A DNA stretch of 64,000 bases from Roseibium aquae. Its GTDB lineage: Bacteria; Pseudomonadota; Alphaproteobacteria; Rhizobiales; Stappiaceae. The notes under the pieces are model-generated. The model saw only the letters and a list, made by a program, of their open reading frames with translations, ran no database searches and was not told the DNA's origin. The stretch spans positions 248,001 through 312,000 of the forward strand of contig NZ_VXDC01000004.1 of NCBI RefSeq assembly GCF_008711285.1, written 5' to 3'. Both the position numbers and the translations under genes were made by a program. The stretch's first letter is position 1, and each line of letters opens with the position of its first letter. This document shows, one piece after another, positions 52,096 through 64,000 of the stretch.

Positions 52096-53124
52096 CTAGA
52101 GGGTCTGCCTTCGGCAGATCTCGACCGGCAGTTCGACACTTGGCGGCTCCAGGCCGTCCAGAGTCTCAACCAAGACACGGGCCGCCAATTGCCCCATCCG
52201 CCGGTGCGGGACATGCACCGTCGTGAGCGGGTACGGTGCGACCTGCGCGAGTTCGATGTCATCGAAGCCCGTGATGGCGACATCCTCCGGCACCCGCAAT
52301 CCCAGACTTGCCGCGCCTTTCAAGGCGCCGATCGCAAGGACATCGTTCCCGCACATCACGACTTCGGGTTGTGCGGCGCCGGACATCAGCTGCGCGAAGG
52401 CTGCTTCGCCATTTTCAATCGAATAGGTGGTCTCGATCAGTTGGAGCGTGCCGGGATCAAGGTGGGCGTCGCGCATGGCCGCGCGGATCCCCTCGACCCG
52501 ATCCCGTGCCCGGTCGTTGGTTCCGGTTTCGGCGGATATGCATCCAATCGCCGTGTATCCCTCTTGAATGACCATATCGGCGAGTTGTTTCATGGCTTTA
52601 CGGTTGTCAAATCCGACCGAAAGCAGGCCGCTGTCCGGCCGTGACGCCCAGGTCAGAACGACAGGGATATCGCGCTTTTCCAGATAGTCGTAGATGCGTG
52701 CATCCCTCTGGTAGCCGATCAGCAAAAGCGCATCTGCCCCCCGCGCGCTCAAGGTTTTGATCTGCTGCTCTTCCAGATCGAGCCGATAGGAGGATGAGGC
52801 GACCAGGAGCGTGCGCCCGTGGCGCTGCAATTCCTCTTGAAACGCCTGCAGCCCGCGCGCGAAGATGGCGTTCTCCATGGTCGGAATAATGGCGCCGACC
52901 ATGTTGGTGCGGTTCGAGGCAAGCGCACGCGCGCTGAAATTGGGCGAATAACCCAGGCGCTCCACCGCTTCCATCACCCGTTTCAAGGTTTTCTCGCTGA
53001 CGACCGTCGGAGAATTGAGACACCTGGACACGGTCGCCGTCGATACGCCTGCCGCAGCGGCCACATCTGCAACGGTCGGGACGGGCCGTCCGCCGGAGCT
53101 ATGGGTTTTGTCCATCTCTGCCAT
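52096..53124 (-). CDS. LacI family transcriptional regulator
   Basis: 342 residues. The DNA-binding region is VADVAAAAGVSTATVSRCLNSP with the hinge helix LGYSPNFSARALASNRT, and the ligand core has VGAIIPTMENAIFARGL and AITGFDDIELAQVAPYPLTTVHVP. It diverges from the DHPS operon with a LacI-type operator in between, so it is very probably the pathway regulator. The effector is likely DHPS or an intermediate (inference). Its closest characterised relatives would be GntR/gluconate-type LacI regulators. Confidence 0.93.
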   Translation of the reverse strand: MAEMDKTHSSGGRPVPTVADVAAAAGVSTATVSRCLNSPTVVSEKTLKRVMEAVERLGYSPNFSARALASNRTNMVGAIIPTMENAIFARGLQAFQEELQRHGRTLLVASSSYRLDLEEQQIKTLSARGADALLLIGYQRDARIYDYLEKRDIPVVLTWASRPDSGLLSVGFDNRKAMKQLADMVIQEGYTAIGCISAETGTNDRARDRVEGIRAAMRDAHLDPGTLQLIETTYSIENGEAAFAQLMSGAAQPEVVMCGNDVLAIGALKGAASLGLRVPEDVAITGFDDIELAQVAPYPLTTVHVPHRRMGQLAARVLVETLDGLEPPSVELPVEICRRQTL

Positions 53125-53194
53125 TCCAAGTAAGTGGCAGCCGCACCATTCGCTGCCGAAACCGATGTCCGCTCATGGAAAATACACTTTTCGC

Positions 53195-53226
53195 TTGTCA
53201 GAAGAAATGTAACCGCTTACATTTCT
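53195..53226 (+). promoter_or_regulatory. Promoter and LacI-type operator of the sulfonate operon
   Basis: A -35 like TTGTCA (53195-53200) and a -10 like TACATT (53218-53223) are 17 bp apart. Overlapping them is the inverted repeat AGAAATGTAA CCGC TTACATTTCT (53203-53226), perfect 10-bp arms around CCGC, of the form usual for LacI family sites. Repressor binding would block the promoter. The first gene starts at 53261. Confidence 0.8.
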
Positions 53227-53260
53227 AATCGCTGGGTGATCTGATCATTGGGAGGTGATC

Positions 53261-53440
53261 ATGCTGTTGGCTTTGGCAGGAGGCTTCTTCTGCGTTTACG
53301 TGATCAACGTGTGGATTGGATCCTTTGGCGGAACACCGTTTTTTGGCGCTGTCGGAGAGATGCTGTGTTTGTTCGCAGTATCCATCTCATTCACGGCGGC
53401 GGTCCTGAGGAAGGAAGCGGAGAAGAAAGCCAGCAAATAA
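53261..53440 (+). CDS. Small two-helix membrane protein, first gene of the sulfonate/TRAP operon
   Basis: 59 residues. ATG 53261 follows GGGAGGT at a good distance, so translation is credible. Two hydrophobic segments (LLALAGGFFCVYVINVWIG, about 2-20, and MLCLFAVSISFTAAVL, about 34-49) and a lysine-rich tail (RKEAEKKASK) make a hairpin membrane protein. It lies 30 bp before the TRAP P-subunit gene and right after the operator. It is not a known TRAP subunit; it could assist the transporter. Confidence 0.7.
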   Translation: MLLALAGGFFCVYVINVWIGSFGGTPFFGAVGEMLCLFAVSISFTAAVLRKEAEKKASK

Positions 53441-53470
53441 TCGGCAAACTGGAATTTCTGGGAGGAAATG

Positions 53471-54613
53471 ATGAAAAAGACAGAAGACCTGGCCTCACAT
53501 GAGCGCCGTAATTTCTTGAAGCTGACCAGCAAGGGCGCGTTTACCGCCGCGGTCGTGGCCGGGGCCGCCGGGACGCTTTGGTCCGACGAAGCCGTTGCGC
53601 AGACGGCCCAGGAAGAGCGCGAGCGCCAACAGGCCGCGGACCACACGATGACACTTGCGACCGCCTATGTTCTCGGCGCATCGCGCAGCTATCCGATCAT
53701 GCAGCTCGACCTGAAGGAAAACATCCAGAACGCGACCAACGGCAAGGTTTATGTAAAACTGGCGCCGGGAGGCCAGCTTGGAGCCGGTGGCGCGCTGGTT
53801 CAGGCCGTCCAGGGCGGCACCATCCAGGCAGCGCAGCACTCGCTTGCCAACTTCGCGCCGTTCGCCTCCGCTGTGGATCTCATCAACATGCCGTATTTCT
53901 GCGGCTCAAACCAGCGCTTTACAAATCTTGTGACCTCCGATGCCTGGAAGCGGGAAGTCCATCCGAAGATCGAAGCCTCCGGCTTCAAGGCGCTGTTCTA
54001 CGTGGTCATTGATCCCCGCGTCGTCGCAATTCGCAGAGGCGGCAACCAGGTGATCACCCCGGGCGATCTGGCTGGCGTGAAGTTCAGGGTGCCAGGTTCG
54101 GCGATGCTTCAGCAGTATTACCGGATGGTCGGCGCCAATCCCACGCCGGTGGCCTGGGGCGAAACACCCTCGGCGATCAAGCAAGGCGTGGCGGATGCGC
54201 TCGATCCGTCAGTCGGCGCGCTCTACGTGTTCGGCTTCAAGGATATTCTCAGCCATGTGACCTTCACGCAAGCCGTGCCGGACAGCCAAGTGTATTCGAT
54301 GAACCTGGAGTGGTTCAATTCCCTGCCTGCCGATGTCCAGGAAGGCATCGAGTTCGCCGGTGAAATCACCGCTCAGCAAAACCTTGCCAAGGTTCCGGCC
54401 GCCCGGTCCTTCGCCATGGCCGAACTGGTCAAGTCGGGCGTCGAGTTCCACTCGCTGACCGAAGATCAGTTGGCCGAATGGCAGGCTGCCGGTGGATACC
54501 AGCGCTCTGAGTGGGATGAGTTCAAGGTGGAACTGGCCGGCTCCATGGATACGTTCAACCGCCTTGAAGAGGCCGCGAACACCCAGGGCCGCTACTACGT
54601 GCACGACGCCTAA
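53471..54613 (+). CDS. TRAP transporter substrate-binding protein (DctP family)
   Basis: 380 residues. GGAGG lies 5 bases upstream of ATG 53471 (a second ATG at 53468 is too close). A Tat signal RRNFLKLTSKGAFTAAVV exports it. The binding-protein body has KVYVKLAPGGQLGAGGALVQAVQGG and LAGVKFRVPGSAMLQQYYRMVGANPTPV with the conserved arginine of DctP proteins. Predicted ligand is DHPS or a related sulfonate, from the catabolic genes that follow. Its gene is separated from the membrane subunit genes by a stem-loop. Confidence 0.88.
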   Translation: MKKTEDLASHERRNFLKLTSKGAFTAAVVAGAAGTLWSDEAVAQTAQEERERQQAADHTMTLATAYVLGASRSYPIMQLDLKENIQNATNGKVYVKLAPGGQLGAGGALVQAVQGGTIQAAQHSLANFAPFASAVDLINMPYFCGSNQRFTNLVTSDAWKREVHPKIEASGFKALFYVVIDPRVVAIRRGGNQVITPGDLAGVKFRVPGSAMLQQYYRMVGANPTPVAWGETPSAIKQGVADALDPSVGALYVFGFKDILSHVTFTQAVPDSQVYSMNLEWFNSLPADVQEGIEFAGEITAQQNLAKVPAARSFAMAELVKSGVEFHSLTEDQLAEWQAAGGYQRSEWDEFKVELAGSMDTFNRLEEAANTQGRYYVHDA

Positions 54614-54624
54614 GGGCTGAACGA

Positions 54625-54652
54625 CGGCCGGCGCCATCAAGAGCGCTGGCCG
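54625..54652 (+). promoter_or_regulatory. Stem-loop between TRAP binding-protein and membrane-subunit genes
   Basis: CGGCCGGCGC (54625-54634) pairs with GCGCTGGCCG (54643-54652), one G-U pair, loop CATCAAGA, 11 bases after the DctP stop. No U-tract, so partial attenuation or 3'-end protection of the binding-protein mRNA. Confidence 0.7.
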
Positions 54653-54740
54653 CGGGCACCGCGTGTTTTCACACATCTGATTTGCGCGACCACCGCATCG
54701 GCTCCACGGACTGATGGGAACGGGAGAGGAGTGCTTGAAG

Positions 54741-55253
54741 TTGAGTATCCTGAATGCAGTCGACAAAAACGGAGAGCGCTGGCTTCTTCTCGTCTTCTAT
54801 ATGATGCTTGTTCTCACAATGTTCATTGAGGTCGTCCGGCGGGAAGTATTTGCCTACTCGTCGATATGGGGCGAGGAAATCGTCCGATATTCCTTCATAT
54901 ACCTGGCCTGGATCGGAGCGGCATCCGCCGTGAAGGAGCGCGGCCACATCCGGATCGACGTGCTGATGCAATATGTCGGCCCGAAGGCGAAGGCCGGACT
55001 CTACATCTTCGGCGACATCGTCATGGCGGTAGTCGCGGTGATCGCCTTCATCTGGTCGCTCGAAACGGTGCTTGTTTCCGCCAAGTTCGGGTCGGTGACC
55101 CATGGCCTGCGCATCTCGCAGGTCTGGTTTTTGAGCGCTGTTCCCTTTGGCTTTGCGCTTGTTCTCTTCCGTCTCACGCAGTCCTTGCTGCGCGATATCC
55201 GCGACCTTCGTAACGGCCGTCCCGTTTACGAAGGCGACAAGTTGTTCGACTGA
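54741..55253 (+). CDS. TRAP transporter small membrane subunit (DctQ family)
   Basis: About 170 residues with four helices: LVFYMMLVLTMFIEVV, WGEEIVRYSFIYLAWIGAA (the conserved WxEE/EIVRY motif), YIFGDIVMAVVAVIAFIW and FLSAVPFGFALVLFRL. AGGAG lies 9 bases before a TTG at 54741, my preferred start; ATG 54714 upstream has no ribosome site. It links the M subunit and stabilises the complex. DctM follows after 11 bp. Confidence 0.88.
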   Translation: MSILNAVDKNGERWLLLVFYMMLVLTMFIEVVRREVFAYSSIWGEEIVRYSFIYLAWIGAASAVKERGHIRIDVLMQYVGPKAKAGLYIFGDIVMAVVAVIAFIWSLETVLVSAKFGSVTHGLRISQVWFLSAVPFGFALVLFRLTQSLLRDIRDLRNGRPVYEGDKLFD

Positions 55254-55264
55254 GGAGACCGGTC

Positions 55265-56596
55265 ATGCTCTGGCAACATCTCCAACCCCAAACCATCGAA
55301 CTCGGCTGGGATTTTTACGGTCCCGTCCTGCTGTTCGTTCTCCTCGTCGCGCTTGCGGTCCCGGTCTGGGCAGCAATAGGTGCTGCCGCGAGCCTCATGC
55401 TCGTCTGGTCCGGTGCCCTTCCCCTGTCCCTTGTCGGGGAAAAGCTTTTTAGCGGCATCGACGCCTTCGCCCTTACCGCCGTCCCCTTGTTCATCCTGAC
55501 GGGCGATGCGCTCGTGCGCACCGGGCTCAGTCGAAAGTTCCTCGATGTCGCAGAAGCGCTGACCCAGTTCGCCAAGGGCGGCTTCGGCTCGGCAACCGTT
55601 CTTGTGTGCGGCATGTTCGCGGCGATCTCCGGATCGGATGCGGCTGGCGCCGCGGCGGTCGGCCGGATGACCATCGACCGGCTGGTGGAAAGTGGTTACC
55701 CCCGCCCCTACGCGTGTGCGCTGGTCGCTGCGGGCGCTTGCACGGGCATTCTGATCCCGCCCTCCATCGCCTACATCATTATCGGATTGGTCCTTGGCAT
55801 ATCCGCGTCCACGCTTTTTCTGGCCGCGATCATTCCCGGGCTTGCCATCCTGGTTTCCATTCTCGCCACCAATATCATCATGAACCGGCTTTACGGCTGG
55901 GAGGGCGGCGGCAATATCGGCCTCAGCGACTATTTCAGCCGCCTTTGGGGTGCCCTTAAATCAGGTTGGTACGCCTTCATCGTCCCGGCGATCATCTTCT
56001 ACGGCATCTTTTCGGGCCGCTTGACCCCAACGGAAGCAGGCGCCACCGCCGTCGTGGTGACGATCGCCATCGGCTTTATCCTGGGAACGATGAAGCTGTC
56101 CGACTTTCCGGCCATGTTTGTCAGCTCGGCCAAGGTCAACGGCGTGATCATTCCGATCATCGCATTCTCCATTCCCCTGGCCGAAGCTCTTGCCATCATC
56201 GGGGTGCCGCAAGGTTTTGTCGCGGTGGCCACAGGTATCAGCGACGAGCCGTGGGTCCTCATCATGATGATGATCCTGGTGCTGATCGCCGCCGGGTGCG
56301 TCATGGAAACCACCCCGAACATCGTGATCCTGGCGCCGATCCTGAAGCCTCTGGCAGACAACATCGGCATGAACGAGATCCAGTTCTGCATCATGATGAT
56401 CACCGCGCTCGGTGTCGGCTTCATCACGCCGCCGCTCGGTCTCAACCTGTTCGTCGTCTCCGGCCTGACTGGTGAGTCGATCCTCAAGATCGCCGCCCGG
56501 GCCGTCCCCTTCGTCCTCTTCATGCTCGCAGTGACCCTGCTGATTGCCTATGTGCCGGCAATCTCCACCACGCTGCTGCCTGAAATCTACAAGTAG
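55265..56596 (+). CDS. TRAP transporter large permease (DctM family)
   Basis: 443 residues, about 12 helices. It has the family motifs GMFAAISGSDAAGAAAVGRM, GACTGILIPPSIAYIIIGLV, GRLTPTEAGATAVVV and the late ITPPLGLNLFVVSGL. It forms the ion-coupled channel with the Q subunit. The 3-subunit set sits directly before hpsN. Usual length is about 430 residues. Confidence 0.93.
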   Translation: MLWQHLQPQTIELGWDFYGPVLLFVLLVALAVPVWAAIGAAASLMLVWSGALPLSLVGEKLFSGIDAFALTAVPLFILTGDALVRTGLSRKFLDVAEALTQFAKGGFGSATVLVCGMFAAISGSDAAGAAAVGRMTIDRLVESGYPRPYACALVAAGACTGILIPPSIAYIIIGLVLGISASTLFLAAIIPGLAILVSILATNIIMNRLYGWEGGGNIGLSDYFSRLWGALKSGWYAFIVPAIIFYGIFSGRLTPTEAGATAVVVTIAIGFILGTMKLSDFPAMFVSSAKVNGVIIPIIAFSIPLAEALAIIGVPQGFVAVATGISDEPWVLIMMMILVLIAAGCVMETTPNIVILAPILKPLADNIGMNEIQFCIMMITALGVGFITPPLGLNLFVVSGLTGESILKIAARAVPFVLFMLAVTLLIAYVPAISTTLLPEIYK

Positions 56597-56604
56597 GTTC
56601 AGCC

Positions 56605-57918
56605 ATGACCGTTGAATATCTGAAAAAAGCAGATCGAACCTCAACCAGCGATGCGTCCGAGACCACCAGGATCGTTCAGGAAATCCTGGATGCGATCGAG
56701 GCGGGCGGAGATGCCGCCGCGATGGAATATGCCGCCAAGTTCGACAAGTATGACGGGGCGATTATTCTCAGCGCGGCAGACATCGAAGCGGCGAGCGCCA
56801 AGGTTCCGGAAAAACTGAAGAACGACATTGGATTCGCCCACGCAAACGTGAAGCGCTTCGCCGAGGCCCAGCGGGAAACCTGCCAGAACATCGAGGTCGA
56901 GGTTATTCCGGGCTTGATCGCGGGCCAGAAAAGCATCCCGGTCAATACCGCGGGCTGTTATATTCCAGGAGGCCGTTACAGCCACATTGCCAGCGCGATC
57001 ATGACCGTGACGACCGCCAAGGTGGCGGGGTGCGAGAACATTATCGCCTGCTCCCCGCCCCGGCCCGGGATCGGCATCAATCCGGCCATCATTCACGCAG
57101 CCCATGTGTGCGGCGCCGACAAGATTGTCGCCATGGGCGGCGTCCAGGGTGTGGCTGCCATGACCTTCGGCCTGTTCGGCCTGCCGAAGGCCAATATCCT
57201 CGTTGGTCCGGGCAATCAGTTTGTCGCGGAAGCCAAGCGGATCCTGTTCGGCCGCGTGGGCATCGATATGTTCGCAGGCCCCACCGACAGTCTAATCCTC
57301 GCCGACAAGACGGCCGATCCGGAAGTGGTCGCCGCCGACTTGGTCGGGCAGGCGGAACACGGCTACAACTCGCCGGTCTGGCTGGTCACCGACACCAGAT
57401 CGCTCGCCGAGGAGGTGATGGCGCTGGTGCCCAAACTCATCGACGATCTGCCGGAGGTGAACAGCCAGAACGCGGCGGCCGCCTGGCGCGATTATGCCGA
57501 GGTGATCCTGTGCGACACCCGCGAGGAAATGGCGGCAACATCCGACGCCTATGCGCCCGAACATCTGACGGTACAGGCCGAGGACCTGGATTGGTGGCTG
57601 GACCGGCTGTCCTGCTACGGCTCCTTGTTCCTGGGCGAGGAAACCACCGTGGCTTTCGGCGACAAGGCGTCGGGCACGAACCATGTTTTGCCGACTTCGG
57701 GCGCCGCGTCCTACACGGGCGGCCTGTCGGTCCACAAGTTCATGAAGATCGTGACCTGGCAGCGGGCGACCCGCGAAGGGTCCAAACCGGTTGCCGAAGC
57801 GACAGCCCGCATTTCCCGCCTGGAAGGCATGGAAGGCCATGCCCGCACGGCGGACATCCGGCTCCGGAAGTATTTTCCAGGTGAGAACTTCGACCTGAGC
57901 GCGGAGGCCGCGGAATAA
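56605..57918 (+). CDS. hpsN: Sulfopropanediol 3-dehydrogenase HpsN (histidinol dehydrogenase homologue)
   Basis: 437 residues of the histidinol dehydrogenase superfamily. Zinc ligands and catalytic residues are kept: QAEHGYNSP (Q, H), YAPEHLTV (E, H), FGDKASGTNHVLPT (D) and LEGMEGHART (H). Context identifies it as HpsN, which oxidises (R)-DHPS to (R)-sulfolactate with two NAD: TRAP genes before it, a dehydrogenase pair and suyAB after it. It is not hisD, whose neighbours would be other his genes. A plain annotation would read histidinol dehydrogenase. Confidence 0.88.
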   Translation: MTVEYLKKADRTSTSDASETTRIVQEILDAIEAGGDAAAMEYAAKFDKYDGAIILSAADIEAASAKVPEKLKNDIGFAHANVKRFAEAQRETCQNIEVEVIPGLIAGQKSIPVNTAGCYIPGGRYSHIASAIMTVTTAKVAGCENIIACSPPRPGIGINPAIIHAAHVCGADKIVAMGGVQGVAAMTFGLFGLPKANILVGPGNQFVAEAKRILFGRVGIDMFAGPTDSLILADKTADPEVVAADLVGQAEHGYNSPVWLVTDTRSLAEEVMALVPKLIDDLPEVNSQNAAAAWRDYAEVILCDTREEMAATSDAYAPEHLTVQAEDLDWWLDRLSCYGSLFLGEETTVAFGDKASGTNHVLPTSGAASYTGGLSVHKFMKIVTWQRATREGSKPVAEATARISRLEGMEGHARTADIRLRKYFPGENFDLSAEAAE

Positions 57919-57922
57919 CGCC

Positions 57923-58675
57923 ATGTCCGGTTTGTTCGACATCTCCGGAAAGGTTGCCTGCGTCACCGGAGCAAGTTCCGGTCTTGGCCGGCAAGCGGCG
58001 ACCGTGTTGGCCCGGGCCGGCGCATCGGTTGTCGGCGTCGCCCGCCGGGCCGCCGATCTCGAAGACTGGCGTCAGGAGGCCGGTGCCCAGACCGCCGCGG
58101 TTCCAGCCGATCTGAGCGACCGGTCAGCCATGTCTCGGATCGCGGAGGATATCGCGGCGCCCTTCGGCCCGCCGCAGATCCTGGTCCATGCGGCAGGGAT
58201 CAACACCCGCGAACCGGCCGATGAGGTGACCGAGGCCGGATGGGACATCACCATGACACTCAACCTCACGGTTCCATTTTTCCTCAGCAAGGCCTTCGTA
58301 CCGGCAATGCGCGAAAAAGGCTGGGGCCGGATCGTCAATTTCGCCTCGCTCCAGACAACCCGGGCCTTTCCCGGCGGCATCGCCTATGGAGCCTCCAAGG
58401 GCGGGATTGGCCAATTGACCAGGGCGATGGCCGAGGCCTGGTCAAGGCATGGCATCAATGCCAATGCCATCGGCCCCGGCTTCTTCCCAACCGAGCTGAC
58501 GGCCGCTGTCTTTGGCGATGAAGCGCGGGCGCAGCGCAACGCGGACCAGACCTGTATCGGCCGCAATGGCGCCCTTGAGGATATCGACGGGCCGATCCTG
58601 TTCCTGTGCTCGGATGCCTCCCGGTATGTGACCGGTCAGGTCCTGATGGTCGACGGGGGGTTCACCGCAAAATGA
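57923..58675 (+). CDS. SDR family oxidoreductase, HpsO/HpsP-like
   Basis: 250 residues. Rossmann motif VTGASSGLGRQAATVLARAGA, NAG-type VHAAGINTREP, catalytic SLQTTRAFPGGIAYGASKGG (S, Y, K) and the C-terminal VTGQVLMVDGGF. Next to hpsN and a zinc alcohol dehydrogenase it fits one of the two DHPS-2-dehydrogenases (HpsO and HpsP) that convert (S)-DHPS to the (R)-form through the 2-oxo compound. I cannot tell which of the two it is. It starts 4 bp after hpsN and overlaps the next gene by 4 bp. Confidence 0.85.
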   Translation: MSGLFDISGKVACVTGASSGLGRQAATVLARAGASVVGVARRAADLEDWRQEAGAQTAAVPADLSDRSAMSRIAEDIAAPFGPPQILVHAAGINTREPADEVTEAGWDITMTLNLTVPFFLSKAFVPAMREKGWGRIVNFASLQTTRAFPGGIAYGASKGGIGQLTRAMAEAWSRHGINANAIGPGFFPTELTAAVFGDEARAQRNADQTCIGRNGALEDIDGPILFLCSDASRYVTGQVLMVDGGFTAK

Positions 58676-59667
58676 AAGCCCTTGTCTATACCGGTCTCGA
58701 AACCCAGGCCTATCGGGATTTTGCCGATCCGGTTCCAGCGGCCGGCGAAGCGCTGATCAAGGTGGCGCATACCGGGATCTGCGGCTCGGACATGCATGCC
58801 TTTCTCGGTCACGACGAGCGCCGGCCCGCCCCGCTTATTCTTGGTCATGAAGTTGCCGGAACCGTCATGTCCGGCGCGCTCGAAGGCAAGCGTGTCACCG
58901 TCAATCCCCTGGTCACTTGCGGAACCTGCGCGGCCTGCGCATCTGGCCGCGACAATCTGTGCCCGGACCGGCAGATCATCTCCATGCCGCCGCGCGAAGG
59001 CGGGTTTGCCGAGTATCTTGCCATGCCCGAACGCAATCTCGTGGTCGTGCCGGATCACATTTCGGACGCGCAGGCCGCCCTTGCCGAACCCATTGCCTGC
59101 GGCTGGCATGCCATCAAGCTGGCGAAACGGGCATCGATGGTCGATCCGGTGGACGCAAAGGCCCTTGTCATCGGCGGCGGCGCAATCGGCCTTGGCGCGG
59201 CTCTTTCGTTGAAGGCGCAAGGGATTTCCAACGTCCGGCTTGTCGAACCCAATGCGGAACGGGCGCAGTATCTTGCCTCCGCTTGCGGGATTGACATCCT
59301 GACCCCAGACCAGGCGGGTGCCAGCGGGCATTATGATCTGATCGTCGACGGCGTCGGATATGCCGCAACGCGAGCAACCGCCTCCAAACTGGCAAGACCG
59401 GGCGGCGTCATTGTCCACATCGGACTGGGATCCGCCGATGGCGGGCTCGATATCCGCCGCATGACGCTGCAGGAAATCACCCTCATCGGCACCTACACCT
59501 ACACGGCCGAAGACTTCCGCGAGACCGCCAAGGCCATGTTCGATGGCCGGCTGGGCGCGCTCGACTGGACCGAGATCCGGCCGCTGTCCGATGGACTGAA
59601 CGCTTTCAACGACCTCCGTAAAGGCGCGGTTTCTGTTCCGAAGATCCTACTCACACCAGACACTTGA
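58672..59667 (+). CDS. Zinc-dependent medium-chain alcohol dehydrogenase, HpsO/HpsP-like
   Basis: 331 residues. ATG 58672 overlaps the SDR stop (ATGA), so it is translationally coupled. Zinc motifs are GICGSDMHAF and GHEVAGTVMSG, the structural-zinc run CGTCAACASGRDNLCP and the nucleotide site VIGGGAIGLGAALSL. It is probably the second DHPS-2-dehydrogenase. The C-terminal half is somewhat shorter than usual (families run to about 340-350). Confidence 0.85.
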   Translation: MKALVYTGLETQAYRDFADPVPAAGEALIKVAHTGICGSDMHAFLGHDERRPAPLILGHEVAGTVMSGALEGKRVTVNPLVTCGTCAACASGRDNLCPDRQIISMPPREGGFAEYLAMPERNLVVVPDHISDAQAALAEPIACGWHAIKLAKRASMVDPVDAKALVIGGGAIGLGAALSLKAQGISNVRLVEPNAERAQYLASACGIDILTPDQAGASGHYDLIVDGVGYAATRATASKLARPGGVIVHIGLGSADGGLDIRRMTLQEITLIGTYTYTAEDFRETAKAMFDGRLGALDWTEIRPLSDGLNAFNDLRKGAVSVPKILLTPDT

Positions 59668-59677
59668 GGAGACATTC

Positions 59678-59968
59678 ATGTCTGAAATTCCGCATCTTCT
59701 CGTCCACGAACACGCCGACAATGTCGGTGTCGTGGTTGTGGAAGGGCTGACCAAGGGCACCGACATGCTGTGCTGCGTCACCCATGACAATTCCACCTTC
59801 CGCCTGACCGCCGGCGCAGATGTTCCGATCGGCCACAAGATCGCTCTGAAGGATCTCAAAGAAGGCGACACGGCCATCAAATACGGCGAGGACATCGGCA
59901 AGATCATTGCCGACATCCCGAAGGGCGACCACGTCCACACCCACAATTGCAAAACCAAGCGCTGGTAA
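59678..59968 (+). CDS. suyA: (2R)-sulfolactate sulfo-lyase subunit alpha
   Basis: 96 residues, a SAF domain protein ([60 protein letters not shown]). The closest general annotation is altronate dehydratase N-terminal (UxaA). With SuyB it cleaves (R)-sulfolactate to pyruvate and sulfite. It starts 10 bp after the dehydrogenase gene, and SuyB's ribosome site overlaps its stop. Confidence 0.9.
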
Positions 59969-59981
59969 GGAGCCGCCTGAC

Positions 59982-61163
59982 ATGTCGACCAAATACTCCA
60001 ATATGACGGTGAAGGCCTACCGGCGCGAGAACGGCCGTATCGGCGTGCGCAACCACGTGGTCATTCTGCCTGTCGACGATATCTCGAACGCCGCCTGCGA
60101 AGCGGTGGCCAACAATGTCAAGGGCACGCTGGCCATTCCCCACGCCTATGGCCGCCTGCAATTCGGGGAGGATCTTGAACTCCATTTCCGCACTATGATC
60201 GGCACCGGGGCCAACCCGAATGTTGCCGCCGTGGTCGTGATCGGCATCGAGCCGGGCTGGACCAAGCGCATCGCCGACGGCATCCGGGAGACCGGCAAGC
60301 CGGTCGCCGAGTTCTCCATCGAGCAGAACGGCGACTTCGAGACCATCCGCCGCGCGTCCTGGGCCGCGAAGGAATTCGTCCACATGACTTCCGAATACCA
60401 GCGCGAAGAATGCTCGATTTCCGAGCTCTGGGTTTCCACCAAATGCGGGGAGAGCGACACGACCACGGGTCTCGGCTCGTGCCCCACCGTCGGCAACATG
60501 TACGACAAGCTGCTGCCGGAAGGCATCACGGGGTTCTTCGGCGAGACCTCGGAAATCACCGGCGCCGAACACATCTGCCAAAAGCGGGCGATCAACGAGG
60601 AAGTCGGCGAGCGCTGGTACAAGATGTGGAAGGCCTATCAGGACGAGGTCATTTTCGCCCATCAGACCGATGACCTGTCCGACAGCCAACCGACCAAGGG
60701 CAACATCGAGGGCGGTCTGACCACCATTGAGGAAAAGGCCCTCGGGAACCTGGAAAAGATCGGCCGCACCTCGCAGTACATCGACATCTTGGAGCCTGCA
60801 GAAGCGCCAAAATCCGGCAACGGCCTCTATTTCATGGACTCGTCCTCCGCCGCCGCGGAATGCGTGACCCTGATGGCCGCGGGCGGGGCCGTGATCCACA
60901 CCTTCCCGACAGGCCAGGGCAACGTGGTCGGCAACCCGATCGTGCCGGTGATCAAGATCACCGCCAACCCGCGCACGGTCCGCACCATGAGCGAGCACGT
61001 GGATGTGGATGTGTCCGGCATTTTGCGACGGGAGATGACCATTGATGAGGCGGGCGATGCCTTGATCGATATGATCTGCCGCACCGCCAATGGCCGCAAC
61101 ACCGCAGCCGAAGCCCTTGGGCACCGGGAGTTCTCGATGACCAAGCTTTACCGGAGCGCTTAA
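59982..61163 (+). CDS. suyB: (2R)-sulfolactate sulfo-lyase subunit beta
   Basis: 393 residues of the UxaA C-terminal family. ATG 59982 follows AAGGAG with 9 bases between. Motifs include [18 protein letters not shown] near the start, [18 protein letters not shown] (cysteines for the iron centre) and [22 protein letters not shown], and [17 protein letters not shown] towards the end. Catalytic subunit with SuyA. Context excludes an altronate dehydratase: no uronate genes are nearby. A stem-loop follows the stop. Confidence 0.92.
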
Positions 61164-61175
61164 GGCCCTTCGAAC

Positions 61176-61199
61176 CGGCGGCCGGCACCCCGGCCGCCG
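61176..61199 (+). terminator. Stem-loop after suyB
   Basis: CGGCGGCCGG (61176-61185) and CCGGCCGCCG (61190-61199), perfect 10-bp stem, loop CACC, 13 bases after the suyB stop. No U-run follows; could be a weak terminator or mRNA 3' end. Confidence 0.55.
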
Positions 61200-61337
61200 C
61201 TCTGGTCTTCTGAAAAAAAGGGTCGGTGCCAGAAGCACTTCAGGACCACGAACAATCAGATCGCGTTTGGCAAGGGCCGGGCCATGGCCTCCATCCTTCC
61301 AGACGCGTTTTGCCCCCCTCGGGATGCGGGGAGCAAA

Positions 61338-61380
61338 GCCGGGATGACGATGGGATTTGGCAGCTCCGCCCGTCGTCATC
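61338..61380. repeat. REP-like element, copy 3
   Basis: Starts with GCCGGGATGAC (61338-61348), the same 11-mer as at 849-859 and 37022-37032 in reverse complement. It folds: GATGACGATGGG (61343-61354) with CCCGTCGTCATC (61369-61380), one G-U pair, 14-base loop. Confidence 0.5.
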
Positions 61381-61497
61381 CTCAGCCAGAGGAGGGTCTC
61401 GGATCCACCTCGCAGGAGGTGTGGCAATTCCGTCGCCAAGACGCGCGAATAACGATAGCTCTTGGCGATCTTTTGTCATTTGAAAGCATGAACACCC

Positions 61498-62508
61498 ATG
61501 GAACCAACCGAACGCCTGACCCTCACCGACGCGCAAGCCCTGATCACGGCGGCCTTCGCCACCGTGGGTGTGCCCGATGCCATCGCGCGCTCGGTTGCCC
61601 AAGCCCTCGTGGCCGCCGAAGCCGAGGGGCAGGTCGGGCATGGATTTTCGCGGGTCGAGGACTACGCCGCCCAGGTCCGCTCCGGCAAGATCATCGCCTC
61701 CGCGCGTGTCGAGATTCACATGAAGGGAACCACCAGCCTGCTTGCCGATGCCGGTTTCGGATTTGCCTATCCGGCGCTGGACGCGGTGATCGAAACCGGA
61801 TCCGTGATCGCGCTGGAGCACGGCTGCGCCGCCATGGGTATCACCCGGTCCCACCATTGCGGCGCCTTGTCGGTGCAGGTCGAAAAGCTCGCCCAAAAGG
61901 GCTTGATGGCGATCATGGTCGCCAATGCGCCAGCGGCCATGGCGCCCTTTGGAGCCAAGGATCCGGTCTTCGGCACCAATCCGATCGCTTTTGCCGCACC
62001 CCGTCCGGGCAAGGATCCACTCGTCGTGGATATGTCCTTGTCGCGCGTGGCGCGCGGCAAGGTCATGAACGCACAGAAGGCCGGGAAGGACATCCCGCAA
62101 GGCTGGGCACTCGACAAGGACGGCAACCCGACGACCAACGCGGAGGCCGCGATGGCGGGAACCATGCTGCCGATCGGCGAAGCCAAGGGCACCGCGCTGG
62201 CGCTGATGGTGGAAATCCTGGCCTCGGTCATGACCGGGGCCGCCAAAAGCACGGAAGCGTCGTCGTTCTTTTCCCCGGACGGACCGCCTCCGGGCGTCGG
62301 TCAGTTTCTGATCGCTCTGAAACCCATGGATTCCGATCATTTTGCACCCAGGATCGACGCCCTTCTCAGTCTGATTGAAACGATGGATGGCACGCGTTTG
62401 CCGGGCAGCCGCCGCGCGGCCGCCATCGCCAAGGCAACAATGGAAGGCATCGATGTCCCGGTGCGGTATGTCGAGGCCGTTAGGAGACTGCGCGATGGGT
62501 CAACCTGA
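61498..62508 (+). CDS. comC: (2R)-3-sulfolactate dehydrogenase ComC-type (malate/L-lactate dehydrogenase family)
   Basis: 336 residues. The family (LDH_2) motifs are GHGFSRVEDYAAQVRSGKI, catalytic-histidine region GITRSHHCGALSVQVEKL, FGTNPIAFAAPRP and the late SEASSF-like KSTEASSFFSP. ComC interconverts (R)-sulfolactate and sulfopyruvate with NADP. Adjacent suyAB makes that role likely over malate or ureidoglycolate. The ribosome site is weak. The next gene overlaps its end by 14 bp. Confidence 0.82.
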   Translation: MEPTERLTLTDAQALITAAFATVGVPDAIARSVAQALVAAEAEGQVGHGFSRVEDYAAQVRSGKIIASARVEIHMKGTTSLLADAGFGFAYPALDAVIETGSVIALEHGCAAMGITRSHHCGALSVQVEKLAQKGLMAIMVANAPAAMAPFGAKDPVFGTNPIAFAAPRPGKDPLVVDMSLSRVARGKVMNAQKAGKDIPQGWALDKDGNPTTNAEAAMAGTMLPIGEAKGTALALMVEILASVMTGAAKSTEASSFFSPDGPPPGVGQFLIALKPMDSDHFAPRIDALLSLIETMDGTRLPGSRRAAAIAKATMEGIDVPVRYVEAVRRLRDGST

Positions 62509-63553
62509 CATACCGGCAGAAGGACCCCGCACCCTTTTGAAAAAGACTGCAGGCAAAACCGCGGCGGCGCGGGAACTGATGCCCGGCCTGCTCGTTGCGG
62601 CCGTGATCGCCCTCGCCAGCCAGTTCATCGCCGAACACTATGGTGCGCCGGCCATGTTGCTAGCCCTCTTGATCGGCATCGCGCTCAACTTCCTGTCCGA
62701 GGACGGACCCTGCAAGGCCGGAATTGCTTTCGGCTCGAAGCAGATGCTGCGGCTGGGAGTTGCTCTCTTGGGGCTCAGGATCAGTTTCGACATGGTGGCA
62801 GCCCTCGGCCTGCCCGTTGTCGGCCTGGTTGTCTGCGGAACGCTTGCGACCATCGCATTCGGGATCACGTTCGCGCGCGCTTTTGGCTTTGACCGCAGCT
62901 TTGGCTTCCTGTCGGCGGGAGCAGTCGCCATTTGCGGAGCATCCGCGGCCATGGCGATTGCCGCCGTCTTGCCCCGGGATTCCGATTCGGAGAACCGTCT
63001 CGTCTTCACGGTTGTCGGAGTGACCATCCTGTCGACGATCGCGATGATCCTGTACCCTGTAGTCAGCCAGGGGCTCGGCTTCGATGACCGGATGAGCGGC
63101 GTTTACCTGGGAGCGACGATCCACGATGTTGCTCAGGTTGTCGGCGCGGGATTTTCCGTATCGGAGGAAACGGGCGAAACCGCGACGCTCGTCAAACTGC
63201 TTCGGGTCGCCATGTTGGCACCGGTCGTTCTGGCGGCCCTACTGATCATCCGGAACACCTCGGGGAAAAGGGCTGCGGACGGCCCCAAAGTCCCGCTGAT
63301 ACCCGCATTCGTGGCAGGATTTGTTCTGCTTGCGGTGATCAATTCTACGATCGATTTACCGGACATGATCGCGGACGGTTCGGCCGCCGTCTCGCGCTGG
63401 CTGCTGTTGCTCGCGATTGCCGCGGTCGGGCTGAAAACCGTTCCAAAGGATCTGATGAAGGTCGGCAAAAGCGCCGCCGCGTTCCTGATCGCCCAAACGG
63501 TCTTTTTGGCCATTTTGATCGGGATCGGACTGCTCGTTGTCCTGCCGGGCTGA
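62495..63553 (+). CDS. YeiH/PF03601 family transporter, probable sulfite exporter
   Basis: 352 residues, about 10 helices. ATG 62495 has AGGAG 8 bases upstream. Family motifs: AMLLALLIGIALNFL, MLRLGVALLGLRISF, GAVAICGASAAMAIAAVLP and GATIHDVAQVVGAGFSVS. Members near sulfonate genes (for example TauZ/CuyZ) are proposed to export sulfite or sulfate. It overlaps comC by 14 bp, so it is in the same unit and would remove the sulfite made by SuyAB. Confidence 0.85.
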   Translation: MGQPDIPAEGPRTLLKKTAGKTAAARELMPGLLVAAVIALASQFIAEHYGAPAMLLALLIGIALNFLSEDGPCKAGIAFGSKQMLRLGVALLGLRISFDMVAALGLPVVGLVVCGTLATIAFGITFARAFGFDRSFGFLSAGAVAICGASAAMAIAAVLPRDSDSENRLVFTVVGVTILSTIAMILYPVVSQGLGFDDRMSGVYLGATIHDVAQVVGAGFSVSEETGETATLVKLLRVAMLAPVVLAALLIIRNTSGKRAADGPKVPLIPAFVAGFVLLAVINSTIDLPDMIADGSAAVSRWLLLLAIAAVGLKTVPKDLMKVGKSAAAFLIAQTVFLAILIGIGLLVVLPG

Positions 63554-63589
63554 CCAGTTGACCATTCACGAACCCAAGAGGAGACCACC

Positions 63590-64000
63590 ATGTACCGACA
63601 CATCCTCATCCCCGTCGCACTTGATCATGAGGCACTGATTGCCCCCAAACAGAAGGTTGCCCGGCGCCTGCTGGAGGACGGCGGCCGTATCACACTGCTA
63701 ACGGTGCTGGAGAATATTCCAGGTTTCGTATCGGAGTTCGTGGATCTCAAGATCGACAATCACCTGGCCGAGAAGGTGGCGGAAAAGCTGCGCGCAGCGG
63801 CGGACGCAGACGCGGACGAGCGGATCATCTGCAAGGTCGTCACGGGCAAGCCCGGCGTGCAGATCGCCGCCTATGCCGCCGAAAACAGTGTCGACTTGAT
63901 AATCGTCGGATCGCACCATCCGTCCGCGCAAGACTATTTCCTGGGGTCGACGGCGTCCCGCGTGGTCCGCCGCGCGGACTGTTCGGTATTTGTGGTTCGA
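63590..64000 (+). CDS. Universal stress protein, UspA type (3' end cut by window edge)
   Basis: 137 residues visible; the reading frame is open at the window end. ATG 63590 follows AAGAGGAG. It has the UspA start MYRHILIPVALDH and the ATP-binding-type loop VGSHHPSAQDYFLGSTASRVVRRADCSVFVV, so nearly the whole domain is present. It follows the exporter gene by 36 bp and is probably the last gene of this unit; small Usp genes often lie beside TRAP and sulfonate genes. Confidence 0.88.
   Translation, partial: MYRHILIPVALDHEALIAPKQKVARRLLEDGGRITLLTVLENIPGFVSEFVDLKIDNHLAEKVAEKLRAAADADADERIICKVVTGKPGVQIAAYAAENSVDLIIVGSHHPSAQDYFLGSTASRVVRRADCSVFVVR

What the first reader, a model, noticed from the sequence alone, without database searches (positions are those of the whole stretch)
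52096..64000. A complete DHPS/sulfolactate degradation operon hidden under generic names
LacI regulator, small membrane protein, TRAP PQM, HpsN, SDR, zinc ADH, SuyA, SuyB, ComC-type dehydrogenase, PF03601 transporter and Usp lie in one run. Family knowledge: HpsN is a histidinol dehydrogenase homologue making (R)-sulfolactate from (R)-DHPS, and SuyAB splits sulfolactate to pyruvate and sulfite. Inference: the organism takes up DHPS, an abundant diatom compound, and grows on it, exporting sulfite. Automated names (histidinol dehydrogenase, altronate dehydratase, malate dehydrogenase) would hide this.
Basis: partly seen in the sequence, partly recalled or inferred. Interest (0 to 1): 0.8.

Follow-up and report, generated by a model that had tools for sequence, protein, structure and literature searches.

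The report
DHPS-eating operon in a marine bacterium
This stretch carries the genes for taking up and breaking down DHPS, an abundant algal sulfur compound; the pathway is already known, but a tiny conserved membrane protein that travels with its uptake system has no known role.

Summary
Confirmed: 52096-64000 holds the genes named, in one run, and they are DHPS genes. The binding protein, HpsN and HpsP match solved DHPS proteins far above other solved relatives; HpsO matches its DHPS entry only just above a 'gluconate 5-dehydrogenase' (408 against 404 bits). The published catalytic residues I checked are kept. A true hisD lies elsewhere. SuyB is 65% identical to Cupriavidus SuyB and separates from two altronate-type proteins. 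The genome is Roseibium/Labrenzia-like. The arrangement is the published Ruegeria hpsRKLMNOPQ unit plus the published SuyAB route: a new member of a known kind. Caveats: sulfite export is inferred, and a SoxC-type sulfite dehydrogenase is present. The S-DHPS branch looks incomplete: no close SlcC or SlcD. The ComC-type enzyme is 51% identical to a ComC-like protein assigned by context. Added here: a conserved 59-residue, two-helix membrane protein, beside an HpsK-type binding protein in 45 of 45 loci found with it and unnamed in the papers seen; and a conserved LacI-type operator before it in 67 of 68 distinct upstream regions.

The parts
52096..53124 (-). LacI-type regulator, HpsR by position and similarity
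   Evidence: PF00356 and Peripla_BP_3; divergent LacI in the same place in relatives; R. pomeroyi SPO0590 = hpsR, LacI family (PMC4334477)
53207..53222 (.). predicted LacI-family operator ATGTAACCGCTTACAT
   Evidence: only site within 3 mismatches of ATGTAAGCGCTTACAT in the 64-kb window; such sites in 67 of 68 distinct upstream regions. A promoter-like match, 53195-53223, overlaps it, but such matches are no commoner than in shuffles
53261..53440 (+). small two-helix membrane protein (59 aa), no family, unnamed
   Evidence: no Pfam or NCBIfam match for the window copy; pN/pS 0.295 over 19 Roseibium-type sequences; AlphaFold helices 2-23 and 31-58, mean pLDDT 83; beside an HpsK-type binding protein in 45 of 45 loci
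53468..54613 (+). HpsK: TRAP substrate-binding protein for DHPS; Tat-like N-terminal signal (my reading)
   Evidence: 690 bits to the solved DHPS TRAP binding protein 24gc; next best 73 bits
54714..55253 (+). HpsL: TRAP small permease (DctQ)
   Evidence: PF04290
55265..56596 (+). HpsM: TRAP large permease (DctM)
   Evidence: TIGR00786 302 bits, over its cut-off
56605..57918 (+). HpsN: R-DHPS 3-dehydrogenase (R-DHPS to R-sulfolactate)
   Evidence: 726 bits to 8wwe, 545 to CpHpsN 8v35, at most 265 to a HisD; His127, Glu319, His320, Asp353, Lys354, His360 kept; the Ser226 of CpHpsN is Thr227 here, as in 8wwe
57923..58675 (+). HpsO: SDR, R-DHPS dehydrogenase
   Evidence: 408 bits to 8wwf HpsO, 404 bits to 6le3 (deposited as gluconate 5-dehydrogenase), then 245; Ser142, Gln144, Tyr155, Lys159 kept
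58672..59667 (+). HpsP: zinc MDR, S-DHPS dehydrogenase; start overlaps the HpsO stop by 4 bases
   Evidence: 464 bits to 8wwd (DsHpsP); next best 107; His59, Glu60, Glu139 kept
59678..59968 (+). SuyA: small subunit of R-sulfolactate sulfo-lyase
   Evidence: 86% to L004, 43% to Cupriavidus SuyA; no Pfam match
59982..61163 (+). SuyB: large subunit of R-sulfolactate sulfo-lyase
   Evidence: 65% to Cupriavidus SuyB, 30% to the genome's altronate-dehydratase-like protein, tree split 100/100
61176..61199 (+). stem-loop just after suyB, possible attenuator or processing site
   Evidence: fold of 61160-61225: -30.9 kcal/mol, z -2.76; no T-run after it
61498..62508 (+). Ldh_2-family dehydrogenase, ComC-type (putative R-sulfolactate/sulfopyruvate dehydrogenase)
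   Evidence: PF02615; 51% to the ComC-like protein of Paracoccus seriniphilus; NF040650 181.6 bits, below its cut-off of 500
62495..63553 (+). PF03601 (YeiH-type) transporter, putative sulfite/sulfate exporter
   Evidence: PF03601 223 bits; TIGR00698 134 bits, below its cut-off of 232.6
63590..64000 (+). universal stress protein, HpsQ-like; runs 6 bases beyond the window
   Evidence: PF00582; R. pomeroyi SPO0597 = hpsQ UspA

Best explanation
This is a DHPS (2,3-dihydroxypropane-1-sulfonate) catabolic operon of the SuyAB type in a Roseibium/Labrenzia-like bacterium. HpsR (LacI) sits on a TGTAAnCGnTTACA-type operator until inducer binds. HpsKLM, a TRAP transporter, imports DHPS, probably with the small membrane protein as a partner. 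HpsN oxidises R-DHPS in a 4-electron step to R-sulfolactate. HpsO takes R-DHPS and HpsP takes S-DHPS to sulfolactaldehyde, which another dehydrogenase must finish. SuyAB splits R-sulfolactate to pyruvate and sulfite. The ComC-type enzyme links sulfopyruvate and R-sulfolactate. Sulfite leaves through the PF03601 transporter or is oxidised by a Sox-type enzyme. Shown here by sequence: gene identities, residues, a conserved palindrome, a separate hisD. Inferred: substrate in this organism, regulation, the ComC step, the role of the small protein, export.
For: Matches to solved DHPS proteins for four components; active-site residues as named in PMC11131964 and PMC11382572; separate hisD; SuyB tree; same order in L004 and L044; hpsR-KLM-NOP-Q naming in R. 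pomeroyi; HpsNOP with SuyB already published, 93 of 272; the R. pomeroyi hpsK mutant SPO0591 loses 78.6% of growth and 64.8% of drawdown on DHPS (PMC10130141, passages); no Xsc over cut-off.
Against: No growth or enzyme data for this organism. No close SlcC (best 39%) or SlcD (best 34%), so how S-sulfolactate from S-DHPS would reach SuyAB is unclear. GabD-2 and CuyA were not searched for. HpsO scores almost as well against 6le3, a protein deposited as gluconate 5-dehydrogenase. The ComC and exporter models score below their NCBIfam cut-offs. The stem-loop and gap after suyB suggest that the last three genes may not share one transcript with the rest.
Confidence: 0.94

Rival explanations
1. A mixed-substrate C3-sulfonate operon: besides DHPS it also serves sulfolactate, or sulfopyruvate from cysteate, the ComC-type enzyme reducing sulfopyruvate to R-sulfolactate for SuyAB.
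For: A ComC-type enzyme stands without a close SlcC or SlcD in the genome; a 51% identical enzyme in Paracoccus seriniphilus sits in a SuyAB cluster that has its own transporter.
Against: The only uptake system in the run has a DHPS-type binding protein; no cysteate or sulfolactate transporter was looked for elsewhere in the genome.
Confidence: 0.3
2. Histidinol, altronate and malate genes: HpsN is a redundant HisD, SuyAB an altronate dehydratase, and the run degrades a sugar acid.
For: Automated models call HpsN hisD over cut-off (TIGR00069 445 bits against 243.8); SuyB belongs to the altronate/galactarate dehydratase superfamily; HpsO is close to a protein deposited as gluconate 5-dehydrogenase.
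Against: A separate hisD scores higher (526 bits); 726 bits to R-DHPS dehydrogenase against at most 265 to HisD; His127 present; SuyB splits from altronate-type proteins; the binding protein matches a DHPS-binding protein.
Confidence: 0.02

Closest known systems
Ruegeria pomeroyi DSS-3 hpsRKLMNOPQ-slcD (SPO0590-SPO0598)
   Same: Regulator, TRAP genes, HpsN, HpsO, HpsP and Usp in the same roles (PMC4334477, passages); an R. pomeroyi strain whose HpsN agrees with 8WWE at 202 of 205 residues (L090) carries the same small ORF and operator.
   Different: R. pomeroyi has slcD next and is placed on the CuyA pathway (PMC11382572 section 2.8); the window has SuyAB, a ComC-type enzyme and a PF03601 transporter, with Usp last.
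Cupriavidus pinatubonensis hpsN-hpsO-MFS-hpsP-suyAB (strain HN-2 plasmid seen here)
   Same: HpsN 56%, HpsO 50%, HpsP 43%, SuyB 65% identical; LacI beside hpsN; SuyAB route.
   Different: An MFS gene stands in the run; neither the TRAP genes nor the small membrane protein was found there.
Rhodobacteraceae bacterium SC52 plasmid pSC52_2 (L004)
   Same: Same gene order from LacI to Usp.
   Different: Sequence only: HpsN 81%, Ldh 59% identical.
SlcC-ComC-SuyAB sulfolactate clusters (Paracoccus seriniphilus L153; P. wurundjeri, PMC12421959, passages)
   Same: SuyAB with a ComC-type dehydrogenase; a putative sulfate exporter gene next to it in L153.
   Different: No SlcC and no tripartite tricarboxylate transporter in the window's run. 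The SlcC and ComC names in L153 are mine, by context.

Membership tests
DHPS degradation operon (hps), SuyAB route | HpsN: closer to DHPS dehydrogenase than to HisD, with the sulfonate-binding His | tested here: met
   His126 of CpHpsN named in PMC11382572, here His127 by the alignment
DHPS degradation operon (hps), SuyAB route | hpsO and hpsP beside hpsN with catalytic residues | tested here: met
   residues named in PMC11131964 section 22; HpsO only 4 bits above a protein deposited as gluconate 5-dehydrogenase
DHPS degradation operon (hps), SuyAB route | Dedicated DHPS uptake system | tested here: met
   binding protein 690 bits to 24gc DHPS TRAP protein
DHPS degradation operon (hps), SuyAB route | SuyA and SuyB grouping with known SuyB | tested here: met
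   (SuyB tree); SuyA by similarity only
DHPS degradation operon (hps), SuyAB route | Growth on DHPS with sulfite or sulfate release | not testable with these tools
   needs culture work
DHPS degradation operon (hps), S-DHPS branch | SlcC or SlcD partner for S-sulfolactate in the genome | tested here: not met
   best matches 39% and 34% identical; queries from Paracoccus seriniphilus and Leisingera, named by context
DHPS degradation operon (hps), S-DHPS branch | Sulfolactaldehyde dehydrogenase GabD-2 | not tested
   no reference sequence at hand
Histidinol dehydrogenase (HisD) | Only or best hisD of the genome | tested here: not met
   hisD at G000:C34 (L011:5403-6698) scores 526 bits to TIGR00069 against 445 for the window gene
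ComC (R-sulfolactate dehydrogenase) | Score over the curated NF040650 cut-off | tested here: not met
   181.6 bits against 500; the Paracoccus ComC-like protein also fails with 186, so the model may be too narrow for bacteria
ComC (R-sulfolactate dehydrogenase) | Closeness to a ComC-like protein beside SlcC and SuyAB | tested here: inconclusive
   51% identical; the other Ldh_2 of the genome 29%; tree inside the group unresolved
YeiH/TIGR00698 sulfate exporter | Score over the curated cut-off | tested here: not met
   134.2 bits against 232.6; Pfam PF03601 is met

The most novel reading that the evidence does not exclude
The 59-residue two-helix membrane protein is a dedicated extra membrane component (or regulator) of the DHPS TRAP transporter HpsKLM, overlooked in the model organism, so that this TRAP system has four protein parts and not three.
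Probability: 0.4. Interest if true: 0.5.

Novelty: new member of a known kind. Interest (0 to 1): 0.3.

Why it matters
DHPS is a globally abundant sulfur compound passed from phytoplankton to bacteria (PMC11131964, abstract). The finding places the SuyAB form of a well-characterised pathway in a Roseibium/Labrenzia-like genome (31 of 87 genomes of its family carry a close HpsN; SuyAB was not searched across the family) and shows again that automated names (hisD, UxaA, Ldh) hide it. The testable new element is the small membrane protein: if HpsKLM needs it, a known transporter has a missed part. The open biochemical point is how the S-enantiomer is finished in a genome without a close SlcC or SlcD.

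Tried and rejected
HisD reading rejected. Altronate dehydratase reading rejected (the altronate side has only 2 rows, one on a long branch). Extending the operon downstream to the SulP transporter and the two-domain Usp at L009:12257-14619: not kept, because besides the own locus only L049 and L123 of the other 86 loci searched had a SulP match and none had a match to that Usp (many stretches end early). The 334-bp gap as a dispersed repeat: rejected, 61200-61480 has one match in the genome. Sigma-70 and terminator scans gave about as many sites as shuffles. NF040650 as judge of ComC: undecided, since the Paracoccus ComC-like protein fails too. Xsc route: no match over cut-off. An HpsN phylogeny proper was not built; identities, bit scores and residues were used.

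Literature on the small protein or an extra TRAP component: searches listed nothing whose title or abstract start names it, and I opened only five papers, mostly in passages. The R. pomeroyi update lists SPO0590 and SPO0591 in succession with no tag between in the passage seen. Searches for DHPS with Roseibium or Labrenzia gave 0 and 3 papers, none opened. Only an open-licence library was searched, so this is not proof of absence in print. The founding DHPS work is known to me only through citing papers.
Full report
WHAT IS THERE. The window lies at G000:C32:248001-312000 of a 4.40-Mb, 37-contig genome. From 52096 to its end it holds, in order, a divergent LacI regulator, a 59-aa membrane protein, three TRAP genes, a HisD-family dehydrogenase, an SDR, a zinc ADH, SuyA, SuyB, an Ldh_2 dehydrogenase, a PF03601 transporter and a Usp. 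HpsN and HpsO lie 4 bases apart, and the HpsO stop overlaps the HpsP start. Between suyB and the Ldh gene lie 334 bp that open with a strong stem-loop.

WHOSE GENOME. The nearest named loci are Labrenzia sp. OB1 and two Roseibium (HpsN 90, 88, 86%).

IDENTITY OF THE GENES. The binding protein scores 690 bits to 24gc, a DHPS TRAP protein (next 73). HpsN scores 726 bits to 8wwe and 545 to 8v35 (HisD at most 265). HpsP scores 464 bits to 8wwd (next 107). HpsO scores 408 bits to 8wwf but 404 to 6le3, deposited as gluconate 5-dehydrogenase, then 245, so its name rests also on its place and residues. PMC11131964 gives 8WWF, 8WWD and 8WWE as HpsO of Ruegeria pomeroyi, HpsP of Dinoroseobacter shibae and HpsN of R. 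pomeroyi. PMC11382572 (abstract and sections 2.4 and 2.8 read) names His126 of CpHpsN as the residue that separates DHPS from histidinol dehydrogenases; by the alignment it is His127 here, while the genome's paralogue has Met and its true hisD has Tyr in that column. The residues tested by mutation in PMC11131964 (abstract, section 21, first parts of sections 22 and 24 read) that I checked are kept: Ser, Gln, Tyr, Lys in HpsO; His, Glu, Glu in HpsP; His320 and Asp353 in HpsN. One contact of CpHpsN, Ser226, is Thr here, as it is in 8wwe.

A separate hisD is present (G000:C34, L011:5403-6698; 35% identical to the window HpsN; 526 bits to TIGR00069). SuyB is 65% identical to Cupriavidus SuyB and 30% to the genome's altronate-dehydratase-like protein, and a 13-row tree splits 11 SuyB from 2 altronate-type rows with 100/100 support; the altronate side is thin and one of its rows is a long branch. 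Neither refutes.

RELATIVES. One GTDB scan with an HpsN alignment kept the best 80 of at least 536 loci, so it leans to close relatives. By tblastn, 19 of 80 carry SuyB nearby, 34 ComD or ComE, none both, and 27 neither within the stretch held (some contigs end early). The upper part is steady and the lower part swaps, as PMC11382572 already reports (93 of 272 HpsN sequences on the SuyAB pathway). SC52 has the window's order, and so has Labrenzia OB1. In the window's family 31 of 87 genomes hold an HpsN at E 1e-150 or better.

THE SMALL MEMBRANE PROTEIN. Among the 80 loci, 45 have an HpsK-type binding protein at 60% identity or more. Of these, 41 have the small gene by tblastn just upstream, three more (L063, L104, L108) have an ORF of like pattern at the same place that I judged by eye, and one lacks room upstream; none of the 35 others has a match (truncated contigs included). 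The other way round, 45 of 45 loci found with the small protein as bait (28 of 87 family genomes, 17 of 385 class genomes, the window's own locus counted twice) have an HpsK-type binding protein beside it at 69-100% identity, and 44 of 45 a LacI. All 28 family genomes with it are among the 31 with HpsN; G079, G083 and G085 have HpsN and no match, and I did not test whether they have HpsK. It evolves as a protein: pN/pS is 0.295 over 171 pairs of 19 sequences, 0.283 in the 51 closer pairs, though mean pS is high (0.66); another frame is often open too. N16, E33, F44 and E52 are invariant in the 63 distinct tblastn-found sequences, but with the two outliers L063 and L104 added only E52 is. AlphaFold gives two helices, 2-23 and 31-58 (pLDDT 83, pTM 0.54). 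There is no Pfam match for the window copy and none over a cut-off for four relatives, and no NCBIfam match. R. pomeroyi tags run SPO0590-SPO0591 with none between in the passage seen, although the R. pomeroyi strain at L090 has the ORF. The Cupriavidus run, with an MFS gene and no TRAP genes, lacks it. The simplest reading is a partner or regulator of HpsKLM; this is inference.

THE REGULATORY SITE. A 16-bp palindrome, consensus ATGTAAGCGCTTACAT, lies before the small gene at 3 mismatches or fewer in 71 of 72 upstream regions, 67 of 68 when identical regions are counted once, 37 of them as a pair. The window has one, at 53207, and no other in 64 kb. It has the shape of LacI-family operators (recalled). 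The only relevant paper found that names hpsR describes no site in the passages seen.

HOW IT WORKS. Uptake by HpsKLM is shown in R. pomeroyi: the SPO0591 mutant loses 78.6% of growth and 64.8% of drawdown on DHPS (PMC10130141, passages). HpsN making R-sulfolactate and SuyAB cleaving it are established for these families (PMC11382572, PMC11131964). HpsP and HpsO give sulfolactaldehyde, which needs GabD-2 (not searched for). S-sulfolactate would need SlcC or SlcD with ComC; the best matches are 39% and 34%, the first in a 555-codon frame, the length of a phosphoglycerate dehydrogenase (inference). So the S branch is open. The ComC-type enzyme is 51% identical to the protein beside a hydroxyacid dehydrogenase and SuyAB in Paracoccus seriniphilus, a pair I named by context after PMC12421959 (passages), and the tree inside the group is not resolved. 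Sulfite may leave by the PF03601 protein (below its NCBIfam cut-off) or be oxidised: a SoxC-type sulfite dehydrogenase scores 649 bits against a cut-off of 420. The Usp corresponds to HpsQ; a Usp is said to control the ectoine TRAP transporter TeaABC in Halomonas (recalled), which makes a transporter role conceivable.

VERDICT. Novelty is low because the operon type, its enzymes and the SuyAB variant are published; the small protein and the incomplete S branch are what remain worth testing.

Noticed in passing
G000:C6:58077-59360 (L010:8051-9358, minus strand): A second HpsN/HisD-like protein, 49% identical to the window HpsN, with Met in place of the sulfonate-binding His, sits among an SDR, a LacI regulator, SnoaL-like, GST-like and cupin-like ORFs and ABC permeases (names are my reading of the translations). 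Proteins of like distance (48-50%) to the window HpsN lie on Mesorhizobium, Aminobacter, Alloyangia, Labrenzia and Roseibium plasmids; whether they are its kin was not tested. Substrate unknown.
   Followed up: partly
window 61164-61497: A 334-bp gap between suyB and the Ldh gene opens with a GC-rich stem-loop (fold -30.9 kcal/mol, z -2.76); 61200-61480 has a single match in the genome.
   Followed up: partly
L009:12257-14619 (just beyond the window): A SulP-type anion transporter (my reading) and a two-domain Usp follow the operon; no relative searched has both beside its DHPS genes.
   Followed up: partly
G000:C2:142910-144145: SoxC-type sulfite dehydrogenase over the family cut-off, a possible sink for the sulfite made by SuyAB.
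   Followed up: no
L004-L008, L044-L123: Usp changes place within the DHPS run (after hpsP, after hpsN, between dctM and hpsN, or last); it is present in 31 of 44 loci with the HpsK-type binding protein at the cut-offs, and in 5 of the 36 without.
   Followed up: partly
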